From Caldilineaceae bacterium SB0661_bin_34 (lineage in GTDB: Bacteria; Chloroflexota; Anaerolineae; Caldilineales; Caldilineaceae), in the NCBI GenBank assembly GCA_009841145.1, contig VXMJ01000093.1, positions 11,982-75,981 on the forward strand: a stretch of DNA of 64,000 bases. The letters run 5' to 3'. The notes beneath the pieces were generated by a model. That model had not been told where the DNA came from, ran no database searches, and worked only from the letters and a program-made list of their open reading frames with translations. Made by a program: the position numbers and the translations under genes. Below are positions 59,343-61,092 of the stretch, in pieces (positions within the stretch are counted from its first letter, which is position 1; every line of letters begins with the position of its first letter).

Positions 59343-59389
59343 AAATGTGTTTTGCCTCCCGTAGCTCGATTGTAGCAAAGGAAAACAAC

Positions 59390-60992
59390 GGGAATTACAT
59401 ACCTGACTAAGCACCGGATGCGTACTACAATAAGCAGAAGCCGCGGGTGTTGAGATCACCGCGCGGCTCCCAGACAGTCAAGGTTCAATGACAACCTTAC
59501 CTGCCAAACCCCATTCTACAACCGAGAACCGTGCGGAGCGGTACCGTATCCGGTTCGACAAGCGCGCCCATGCGGCCAAGTGCGCCCAGATCGCGGGTGC
59601 GTGCAGGCTGGTGTGGAACATTCTGCTGGCCGATTGTGAGCGGCGGTATCGATTGAGTCGTGAGTTGGGGATCGATGACAATGGCGGACATCCCATCGAC
59701 AAGTCCGTCTCGTTCTTCACGCTGGGCAAGCGGTTCACGGATTTGCGAAGCAGATCCGACGCGGCGTGGGTTCGGGATTTCATGGATTCACCGCAGGGAA
59801 AGCGGTACCGGGACATGGATCTGTCCTGGCTGCGGGACATGCCGTATGCACCGCTCCGCTACACTGCGAAGTACCTGGCCGACGCGTACACGCGCTTCTT
59901 CAAGGTGTGGGCAGAAGCCAAGTCGGAAGGGACTCCCCTCGGCCGGCGCCAGTCGGACGGCAAGCCCAAGGGGTTTCCGAAGTACAGGAAGAAGTTCGAC
60001 CGCGACGACGGGTTCGCCATTCCCGGCGACGTGCGCATGGACGGAGACCGGATGCACATCCCGAAGGTGGGGTGGGTGCGCCTGGAAGGGAGCGGGTTGT
60101 ACCGGGGCTGCAAGCCGAAGCAGGTGCGCATCCGGAAGGAAGGCACAGAGGATCGCCCCAAGTGGTACGCCTACGTGTTCTACGAAGTGCCGCCGGACCA
60201 TTTGAAGCAACCTGCCTGGACTGGCGCGATTGGCTTGGACCGGAACGTAGGGCAGGCCACCGACAGCGACGGCGAGGTGTACGAGACACCCGACGACCCG
60301 CAGCTGGAGGGGAAGATCAAGCGCAAGGAACGGAAGAAGGCCAAGTCGCTGGCGCGTTCCAAGGCCAACGGCAAGCCCGTGTCCAACCGCGGTCGGCGCA
60401 TAGGTGGACAGTTGAAGAAACTGAAACGCAAGCAGAAGCGTCGCCGGGAGAACGCCGCCCACCAGCACAGCCGCAAGATGGCCGACACGGCGCACACCGT
60501 GGTCATTGAGGACCTGGACATCAAGGACATGACCAAGAGCGCCAAGGGTACGGTGGAAGAGCCCGGCAAGAATGTAAAGCAGAAGGCCGGACTCAACCGC
60601 GAGATCCTGAAATCCAACTGGGGCCGCACGGAGCGGATGCTGGACTACAAGGCGGGGCAGGTACTGAAGGTTCCACCTGCCTACACGTCGCAGACCTGTG
60701 CGGCGTGCGGACACGTCGGCAAGGAGAATCGCAAGACACAGGCACACTTCCGATGCACGGCGTGCGGACACACTGCGAACGCAGATCGCAATGCCGCTCA
60801 AAACATCCTGGAGCAGGGCCTGGCCCTGCTCCCGAAGGCCCGCGGGAATGGGGCTTCTGCACGGCGAGAGGCGCTCGATCCCTGTTTGTTGCCTGGAGCA
60901 ACCGGCAAATCGACTTCTATGACCCGTGAACAAGGCATGCTGGCTACACTGGAGCCTCCGGGTTCCGGTGCTTAGTCAAGTATGTAATTCCC
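59390..60992 (+). mobile_element. TnpB-bearing element B with 28-bp TIRs and 8-bp TSD
   Basis: gggaattacatacctgactaagcaccgg (59390-59417) vs reverse complement of 60965-60992 gggaattacatacttgactaagcaccgg (27/28); aaaacaac at 59382-59389 and 60993-61000. Confidence 0.93.
59488..60975 (+). CDS. tnpB: RNA-guided endonuclease TnpB (IS605 OrfB family)
   Basis: RuvC motifs GLDRNVG, VIEDLD, ADRNAA; zinc finger CAACGHVGKENRKTQAHFRCTACG. Confidence 0.95.
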   Translation: MTTLPAKPHSTTENRAERYRIRFDKRAHAAKCAQIAGACRLVWNILLADCERRYRLSRELGIDDNGGHPIDKSVSFFTLGKRFTDLRSRSDAAWVRDFMDSPQGKRYRDMDLSWLRDMPYAPLRYTAKYLADAYTRFFKVWAEAKSEGTPLGRRQSDGKPKGFPKYRKKFDRDDGFAIPGDVRMDGDRMHIPKVGWVRLEGSGLYRGCKPKQVRIRKEGTEDRPKWYAYVFYEVPPDHLKQPAWTGAIGLDRNVGQATDSDGEVYETPDDPQLEGKIKRKERKKAKSLARSKANGKPVSNRGRRIGGQLKKLKRKQKRRRENAAHQHSRKMADTAHTVVIEDLDIKDMTKSAKGTVEEPGKNVKQKAGLNREILKSNWGRTERMLDYKAGQVLKVPPAYTSQTCAACGHVGKENRKTQAHFRCTACGHTANADRNAAQNILEQGLALLPKARGNGASARREALDPCLLPGATGKSTSMTREQGMLATLEPPGSGA

Positions 60993-61092
60993 AAAACAAC
61001 ACCGTTTGAACGCGAGGGTCGGGTCGGTTTACGGGGAGCGCGGGACGCGGTGCGCACAGGGAACCGCGATCAGCGCAAATGCGCAGTCATGT

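What the first reader, a model, noticed from the sequence alone, without database searches (positions are those of the whole stretch)
59382..61000. TnpB gene packaged in an element with 28-bp terminal inverted repeats and a perfect 8-bp target-site duplication
TIRs gggaattacatacctgactaagcaccgg / (revcomp) gggaattacatacttgactaagcaccgg match 27/28 and are flanked on both sides by aaaacaac. IS200/IS605 (Y1 TnpA) and IS607 (serine) elements that normally carry tnpB lack TIRs and do not create TSDs, so this looks like a 1603-bp DDE-style cargo element whose only gene is an RNA-guided nuclease, presumably mobilised in trans. The tnpB stop codon (60973-60975) lies inside the right TIR, so any omega-RNA scaffold would have to overlap the tnpB 3' end and TIR, with its guide read from flanking DNA (aaaacaacaccgtttgaacg...).
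Basis: partly seen in the sequence, partly recalled or inferred. Interest (0 to 1): 0.92.

Follow-up and report, generated by a model that had tools for sequence, protein, structure and literature searches.

The report
TnpB nuclease riding a cut-and-paste transposon
In uncultured Caldilineaceae bacteria, a gene for the RNA-guided DNA cutter TnpB is carried by a cut-and-paste type of transposon with inverted-repeat ends and 8-bp duplicated target sites; bacterial TnpB was thought to occur only in two unrelated transposon families, and here the transposon end appears to be reused as part of the nuclease's guide RNA.

Summary
The element (59390-60992) has 28/29 matching TIRs and a perfect 8-bp TSD. 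Three congeneric genomes carry the empty site. It is one of dozens: about 50 TnpB loci per genome in four Caldilineaceae (Chloroflexota) MAGs, most traceable to GGG...TGAC TIRs, many with perfect 8-bp TSDs. Autonomous relatives with near-identical TIRs and 8-bp TSDs in a sister genus encode IS1595-family DDE transposases. The window's genome has no Y1 TnpA, so this is not IS200/IS605.

The system looks functional. TnpB keeps RuvC D-E-D and core dN/dS is about 0.2. A covarying omega-RNA fold overlaps the tnpB 3' end, and the last five TIR bases co-change with the first hairpin loop, the known TnpB pseudoknot. G lies directly 5' of the TSD in 61/65 insertions, on that side only, with clade-specific neighbours, as expected for a TAM.

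[quoted passage not shown] Cleavage, TAM, omega-RNA and transposition are predicted, not assayed.

The parts
59380..59381 (+). GG immediately 5' of the TSD: predicted TAM (may extend into the first TSD base)
   Evidence: G at this position (-9 from the left end) in 61/65 tnpB-element insertions, mirror position only 10/43; GG also present in the three empty sites
59382..59389 (+). left target-site duplication AAAACAAC
   Evidence: single copy at empty sites
59390..59418 (+). left terminal inverted repeat (LE)
   Evidence: conserved ends in other copies
59403..59431 (+). sigma70-like promoter, -35 (CTGACT) inside the TIR, 17-nt spacer, -10 TACAAT
   Evidence: 9/12 consensus; 0.1 expected in shuffles; consensus match only
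59488..60975 (+). tnpB, 495 aa; RuvC D251-E341-D433, zinc ribbon C404/C407/C423/C426
   Evidence: Pfam and NCBIfam TnpB models, invariant catalytic and Cys residues, AlphaFold/Foldseek top hit ISDra2 TnpB, core dN/dS about 0.2
60833..60937 (+). conserved omega-RNA core (five helices), overlapping the tnpB 3' end; scaffold inferred to run to 60992
   Evidence: covariation, 99.1% of cells paired, 9 pairs changed on both sides, 0/500 shuffles; model R1 hit 96.3 bits
60844..60849 (+). GGGAAT in the loop of hairpin 1: 5' strand of the predicted pseudoknot
60964..60992 (-). right terminal inverted repeat (RE); its terminal ATTCCC (60987-60992) is the predicted pseudoknot 3' strand; contains the tnpB stop at 60973-60975
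60993..61000 (+). right target-site duplication AAAACAAC
60993..61012 (+). predicted guide of this copy, AAAACAACACCGTTTGAACG (TSD plus right flank)
   Evidence: position after the scaffold end; inference from established TnpB biology
16378..17838 (-). second element of the same kind in the window (another TnpB clade): TIRs at both ends, tnpB 16383-17729 (-), omega-RNA 16409-16510 (-), TSD 6/8

Best explanation
The feature is a non-autonomous TIR/TSD transposon, most likely mobilised in trans by an IS1595-family DDE transposase, whose only gene is an apparently functional RNA-guided nuclease, TnpB. Proposed working: the transposase excises or copies the element by its TIRs and inserts it with an 8-bp TSD. 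The tnpB transcript yields an omega-RNA whose scaffold is the 3' end of tnpB plus the right TIR. The terminal ~5 TIR bases pair with the loop of hairpin 1, so the scaffold ends at the transposon border and the guide is TSD plus right flank. TnpB then cleaves sites that read TAM (NG, often GG or CG)-TSD-flank, that is, empty sites left by excision or present on sister or related chromosomes. Repair from the occupied copy restores or spreads the element. Shown by sequence: TIRs, TSDs, empty sites, multi-copy family, IS1595 relatives, intact TnpB, covarying RNA, flank motif. Inferred: IS1595 as mobiliser, expression of the omega-RNA, cleavage, and retention.
For: TIR and TSD anatomy. Empty sites in three congeners. 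Of 35 non-redundant tnpB elements with both ends called, 13 have 8/8 TSDs, 6 have 7/8 and 3 have 6/8; further 8/8 pairs join contig ends. IS1595 DDE transposases sit in elements with near-identical TIRs and perfect 8-bp TSDs (L103, L104), and an intact IS1595 in the same genus has TSD TATGGTTT and TIRs resembling those of one TnpB clade. No Y1 TnpA in the genome. TnpB domains, catalytic triad, fold and purifying selection. RNA covariation and distant-homologue hits at tnpB 3' ends. Pseudoknot loop and TIR end co-change GGGAAT:ATTCCC, GGGAC:GTCCC, GGGGC:GCCCC, GGGGA:TCCCC, GGCAC:GTGCC. Flank G at -9 in 61/65, asymmetric (Fisher 1e-14), clade-specific neighbours, against 7/18 at tnpB-less IS1595 ends. 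omega-RNA-only MITEs with other TIRs show the same motif, 16/19.
Against: No intact IS1595 transposase was found in the window's own MAG, only degraded copies, and no autonomous element in this genus has TIRs identical to the window's. 13 of 35 elements show little or no TSD (4/8 or less). Some pseudoknot haplotypes have one mismatch (8 of 46 copies AGCCCC with GGGACT, and L157). Synonymous suppression of the 3' tail is clear in two groups but weak in others. No RNA-seq, cleavage or transposition data.
Confidence: 0.8

Rival explanations
1. The flank motif is a target preference of the transposase, not a TAM. The DDE transposase chooses NG|WWW sites in a fixed orientation, and TnpB is a passenger that does not shape which insertions persist.
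For: TSDs also show a symmetric WWWSSWWW pattern that must come from the transposase, and TnpB clades differ in subterminal TIRs, so clade-specific motifs could follow the transposase.
Against: The G is on one side only (61/65 vs 10/43), is not enriched at tnpB-less IS1595 ends (7/18), and persists in omega-RNA MITEs whose TIRs differ (16/19).
Confidence: 0.12
2. The element is mobilised by a DDE transposase of another family with 8-bp TSDs, not IS1595; the TIR likeness is convergent.
For: The own genome holds only degraded IS1595 genes; the omega-RNA MITEs have quite different TIRs.
Against: About 18 of the outer 20 TIR bases agree with IS1595 elements of the sister genus, which also make 8-bp TSDs; an intact IS1595 in the same genus has TIRs like another TnpB clade.
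Confidence: 0.15
3. TnpB is a decaying passenger with no nuclease role; the element is an ordinary MITE-like transposon.
For: Many copies are fragments or carry stops.
Against: Core dN/dS about 0.2 across several clades, invariant D-E-D and zinc ribbon, covarying omega-RNA, flank motif.
Confidence: 0.04
4. It is a standard IS200/IS605 or IS607 (or TnpB-only IS1341-like) element whose real ends differ and whose TIRs are coincidental.
For: tnpB normally occurs there; the genome holds at least 22 IS607 TnpA genes.
Against: Empty sites and TSDs fix the ends at the TIRs; no Y1 TnpA in the genome; IS200/605 and IS607 elements lack TIRs and TSDs (PMC3627910).
Confidence: 0.01

Closest known systems
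Fanzor1 / Fanzor2* in TIR+TSD eukaryotic DNA transposons (Bao & Jurka 2013 PMC3627910; Yoon et al. 2023 PMC10711439)
   Same: TnpB-family nuclease as the only gene of a non-autonomous TIR/TSD transposon; [quoted passage not shown]
   Different: Bacterial host and TnpB-type protein; the pseudoknot (reported lost in Fanzor1) is retained and co-changes with the TIR; the motif here sits directly 5' of the whole TSD, suggesting that most of the TSD is guide rather than scaffold.
IS200/IS605 TnpB (ISDra2, 8h1j/8exa)
   Same: TnpB fold, D-E-D triad, omega-RNA from the tnpB 3' end with a 5-nt pseudoknot next to the guide, scaffold ending at the transposon border.
   Different: No Y1 TnpA and no target-site-specific insertion; has TIRs and 8-bp TSDs. 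In IS605 the TAM equals the TnpA target motif, here the two are separated by the TSD.
IS607 TnpB (ISXfa1; TAM GGG per PMC10711439)
   Same: G-rich TAM-like motif, pseudoknot at the scaffold 3' end.
   Different: No serine recombinase in the element, TIR/TSD ends; IS607 elements in the same genome appear separate.
IS1595-family transposons with passenger genes (L103, L104 here)
   Same: TIR sequence and 8-bp TSD.
   Different: The passenger is TnpB plus omega-RNA and the transposase gene is missing; the autonomous relatives found carry DNA methyltransferase and restriction genes.

Membership tests
TnpB (OMEGA nuclease) | OrfB_IS605 and TNB (zinc ribbon/RuvC) domains with D-E-D triad | tested here: met
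   PF07282, PF01385, PF12323, NF040570; D251, E341, D433 invariant; Foldseek top 8h1j
TnpB (OMEGA nuclease) | structured omega-RNA at or overlapping the tnpB 3' end, with pseudoknot to the guide-adjacent bases | tested here: met
   covariation, pseudoknot co-change, hits in distant homologues at the same place; not observed as RNA
TnpB (OMEGA nuclease) | RNA-guided, TAM-dependent cleavage | not testable with these tools
   only a flank motif consistent with a TAM
IS200/IS605 | Y1 HUH TnpA in the element or available in trans | tested here: not met
   no Y1_Tnp in the genome
IS200/IS605 | no TIR, no TSD | tested here: not met
   TIR, TSD and empty sites
IS607 | serine TnpA adjacent; no TIR or TSD | tested here: not met
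   TnpA genes exist in the genome but not in this element; TIR and TSD present
IS1595 | DDE_Tnp_IS1595 transposase gene in the element | tested here: not met
   only tnpB inside; hence at most a non-autonomous derivative
IS1595 | TIRs of the family and 8-bp TSD | tested here: met
   outer ~20 bp agree with L103/L104, same TSD length
IS1595 | mobilisation by an IS1595 transposase | not testable with these tools
   needs a transposition assay
Fanzor | eukaryotic or viral host and Fanzor-type protein | tested here: not met
   host Caldilineaceae; TnpB-type protein

The most novel reading that the evidence does not exclude
TnpB and its omega-RNA act as a portable retention module that colonised TIR/TSD transposons of more than one type in bacteria, including 170-183-bp MITEs that carry only TIRs and an omega-RNA. 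Such MITEs would be moved by a transposase in trans and kept or driven by TnpB in trans, each re-programming TnpB with its own flank: a two-fold parasite.
Probability: 0.55. Interest if true: 0.93.

Novelty: new variant of a known kind. Interest (0 to 1): 0.88.

Why it matters
Yoon et al. [quoted passage not shown] This is a bacterial counter-example with dozens of copies per genome. In IS605 the TAM and the transposase target are the same motif (PMC11870625), so retention by TnpB and choice by TnpA cannot be told apart from insertion sites. Here the TSD separates them: the bias for G 5' of the TSD would be a natural record of which insertions TnpB allowed to persist. The pseudoknot loop shows how a guide RNA can be re-fitted to new transposon ends. 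The predicted TAMs, guides and omega-RNAs can be tested directly.

Tried and rejected
1) IS982 element at C42 as the autonomous partner: it is inserted into the TIR of a tnpB element. 2) Rfam: no credible known RNA family in the element. 3) TIRs around distant TnpB relatives (Acetobacteraceae, Gemmobacter and others): no TIR pair bracketing tnpB among the longest inverted repeats listed. 4) The same omega-RNA elsewhere: 0 of 96 other genomes of the family and class outside the genus. 6) A fuzzy TIR score of 13/20 alone is not discriminating (18/60 shuffled windows reach it), so claims rest on GG/CC ends at clade-typical positions, TSDs and empty sites. 7) L220/L227 share an 8-mer that looked like a TSD pair but have different end types; not used as a TSD (the L227 left flank is counted among the 65). 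8) Literature: no paper in the held library reports TnpB in an IS1595-type or other bacterial TIR/TSD element, as far as the listed hits show; two key papers (Altae-Tran 2023 PNAS, Meers 2023 Nature) are not held, so priority is not fully excluded.

Full report
OBSERVATION. The window holds a 1603-bp element, 59390-60992, with 29-nt inverted ends matching at 28 positions, flanked by AAAACAAC on both sides. Its only long credible gene is tnpB, 59488-60975, with the stop inside the right TIR. The protein hits TnpB models (TNB domain 6e-19, guided_TnpB 190 bits). It keeps the RuvC D251, E341, D433 and the zinc-ribbon cysteines in all relatives aligned. It is modelled with a TnpB fold; the best solved match is ISDra2 TnpB (8h1j). 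Residues 450-495 are predicted disordered, which fits a tail kept for RNA rather than protein reasons.

THE BOUNDARIES ARE REAL. The joined flanks (300 + 300 bp, one TSD) were searched in the other genomes of the genus. G001 (90%), G002 (85%) and G003 (87%) carry the site without the element, with a single TSD-length segment (G001: aacGG|AAAGCAAC|gccg). Other copies in the own genome (80-84% identical DNA) end at the same TIRs; the C101 copy has its own perfect TSD.

A LARGE FAMILY. By protein, four genomes of this genus hold about 47-77 TnpB matches each, fragments included. One search identifies G001-G003 as Caldilineaceae/Caldilineales MAGs (JAPPAJ IRC1_bin_30, JAAXGZ Plut_88876, MPMO bin34) by their contig lengths. 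I extracted 60 loci. TIR-type ends (GGGRMTTATAT...) were called at one end or more in 56 and at both ends in 40; since 13/20 scores arise by chance, weight rests on the stricter set. Of 35 non-redundant elements with both ends called, 13 have perfect 8-bp TSDs, six 7/8 and three 6/8. In G001, where copies collapse at contig ends, four more 8/8 TSDs join the ends of different contigs (L215/L216, L221/L222, L224/L225, L231/L232). About a third show no TSD, as expected after recombination between copies or loss of an end; this was not resolved.

WHO MOVES IT. Pattern searches found the TIR in this genus and in a sister genus of the same family. Two sister-genus elements (L103, 2952 bp, TSD catttttt; L104, 2504 bp, TSD caaaaata) have 24-27-bp TIRs nearly identical to the window's outer 20 bp. 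Each encodes an IS1595-family DDE transposase (PF12762 2e-40 and 1e-42; NF033547), plus a DNA methyltransferase and, in L104, an MvaI/BcnI-like restriction enzyme. In the same genus, G001:C348 has an intact IS1595 gene with TSD TATGGTTT and a right end GGGGATTATATCGAGGGGTTGAC, close to the ends of one TnpB clade. The window's own genome has only degraded IS1595 genes and no Y1 TnpA. It has at least 22 IS607 TnpA genes, but IS607 makes neither TIRs nor TSDs. So mobilisation in trans by an IS1595-type transposase is the best inference, not a demonstration.

THE GUIDE RNA. The last ~150 nt of tnpB align across all clades as GGCCCGYGGGACNGGGGCTNCTGCACGGCGAGRGGCG...GACCCGTGAAC. For five helices placed by hand on 30 sequences, 99.1% of cells pair, 9 pairs change on both sides and 61 cells are doubly changed; no shuffle of 500 reached this, and sliding the partners drops pairing to 59% or less. 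The structure was written by inspection of these sequences, so the slide control is partly favourable by construction; the double changes are the stronger evidence. Synonymous divergence collapses in the tail in two clades (0.14-0.36 in the core against 0-0.11 in the tail), while core dN/dS is about 0.2. A covariance model finds 31-39 copies per genome in this genus and none in 96 others. It weakly but correctly hits the 3' ends of distant tnpB genes not used to build it (L334, L335, L333). Most copies stop 5 bp before the right border, so nearly the whole right TIR is both coding and scaffold.

THE TIR END IS RECODED AS PSEUDOKNOT. In known TnpBs the five scaffold bases next to the guide pair with the apical loop of stem-loop 1 (PMC10711439). 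Here the loop of hairpin 1 and the right border co-change: GGGAAT:ATTCCC (window), GGGAC:GTCCC, GGGGC:GCCCC, GGGGA:TCCCC (haplotype shuffle p = 0.0055), and GGCAC:GTGCC in the MITEs below. Exceptions with one mismatch exist (8 copies GGGACT:AGCCCC; L157).

A TAM-LIKE BASE OUTSIDE THE TSD. In tnpB orientation the base just 5' of the TSD is G in 61 of 65 insertions (nominal p 2e-27); the mirror base 3' of the TSD is C in 10 of 43 (Fisher 1e-14). Neighbouring bases depend on the TnpB clade: CG|A (C 14/17), GG|A, NG|TT (T 7/8). At tnpB-less IS1595 ends G is 7/18 (p 2e-6). Some insertions may be related by descent across genomes and were de-duplicated only by flank identity, so p-values are approximate. 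This is the position a TAM must have if the guide starts at the first base after the right TIR.

OMEGA-RNA-ONLY MITES. The RNA model led to 170-183-bp elements without tnpB in three of the genomes. Their TIR is quite different (GGCAGTGAGTAGATGCAGGCTTT), their 8-bp TSDs are perfect in 8 of 13 with both ends called and 7/8 in four more, and the flank shows G in 16/19 (p 1.5e-6), with the pseudoknot changed to match the new TIR. A tnpB gene with this TIR also exists (L433). Because the motif follows the RNA and not the TIR, a pure transposase preference becomes unlikely. That these MITEs use TnpB in trans is inference.

MECHANISM. Shown: anatomy, empty sites, selection, RNA covariation, flank bias. 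Inferred: IS1595 transposase in trans, omega-RNA expression, TnpB cleavage at TAM-TSD-flank, repair from an occupied copy, and loss of insertions without TAM. Compared with IS605, where the TAM is the transposase's own target motif (PMC11870625), target choice and nuclease licence are uncoupled here.

KNOWN OR NEW. Bacterial TnpB elements are described as lacking TIRs and TSDs (PMC3627910) and as confined to IS200/605 and IS607 (PMC10711439). The nearest parallel is eukaryotic Fanzor in TIR/TSD transposons. I found no report of a bacterial case in the held library; closed-access papers could not be checked. I file it as a new variant: a TnpB/omega-RNA system on an IS1595-like non-autonomous transposon. 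It is not a member of IS200/IS605 or IS607 (defining features not met), and at most a non-autonomous derivative of IS1595.

Noticed in passing
window 16378-17838 (-): A second TIR-bounded TnpB element in the same window, from another TnpB clade, with omega-RNA (112 bits), TSD 6/8 and CG|A flank.
   Followed up: yes
L103:1142-4093, L104:1068-3571 (sister genus): IS1595 transposons carrying a DNA methyltransferase (and an MvaI/BcnI-like endonuclease in L104) between TIRs with perfect 8-bp TSDs: mobile restriction-modification cargo.
   Followed up: partly
L384-L390, L404-L433: 170-183-bp MITEs that carry only TIRs and an omega-RNA, no tnpB; 8-bp TSDs; TIR unlike that of the tnpB elements.
   Followed up: yes
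L252:565-808; L253:568-~1125: Short MITEs with IS1595-like TIRs and no tnpB or transposase (244 bp with TSD ttatcctt/ttatcttt; ~557 bp).
   Followed up: partly
L040:493-1502: An IS982-family element inserted into the TIR of a tnpB element.
   Followed up: partly
own genome G000, e.g. C37:447-986, C46:42708-43247: At least 22 IS607-type serine TnpA genes above cut-off in one 4.3-Mb genome, so two TnpB-bearing mobile systems probably coexist.
   Followed up: no
L125:480-514 and 1004-1038; left flanks of L183 and L192: A 35-bp perfect inverted repeat (CCGGCACTGTTTCACTTTCG...) that recurs next to truncated TnpB elements; possibly another transposon.
   Followed up: no
window 61093-61123: Perfect 15-bp hairpin (GGGGAAGGTGAAGCG) between the element and the adjacent transporter genes; terminator-like but without a T run.
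   Followed up: no
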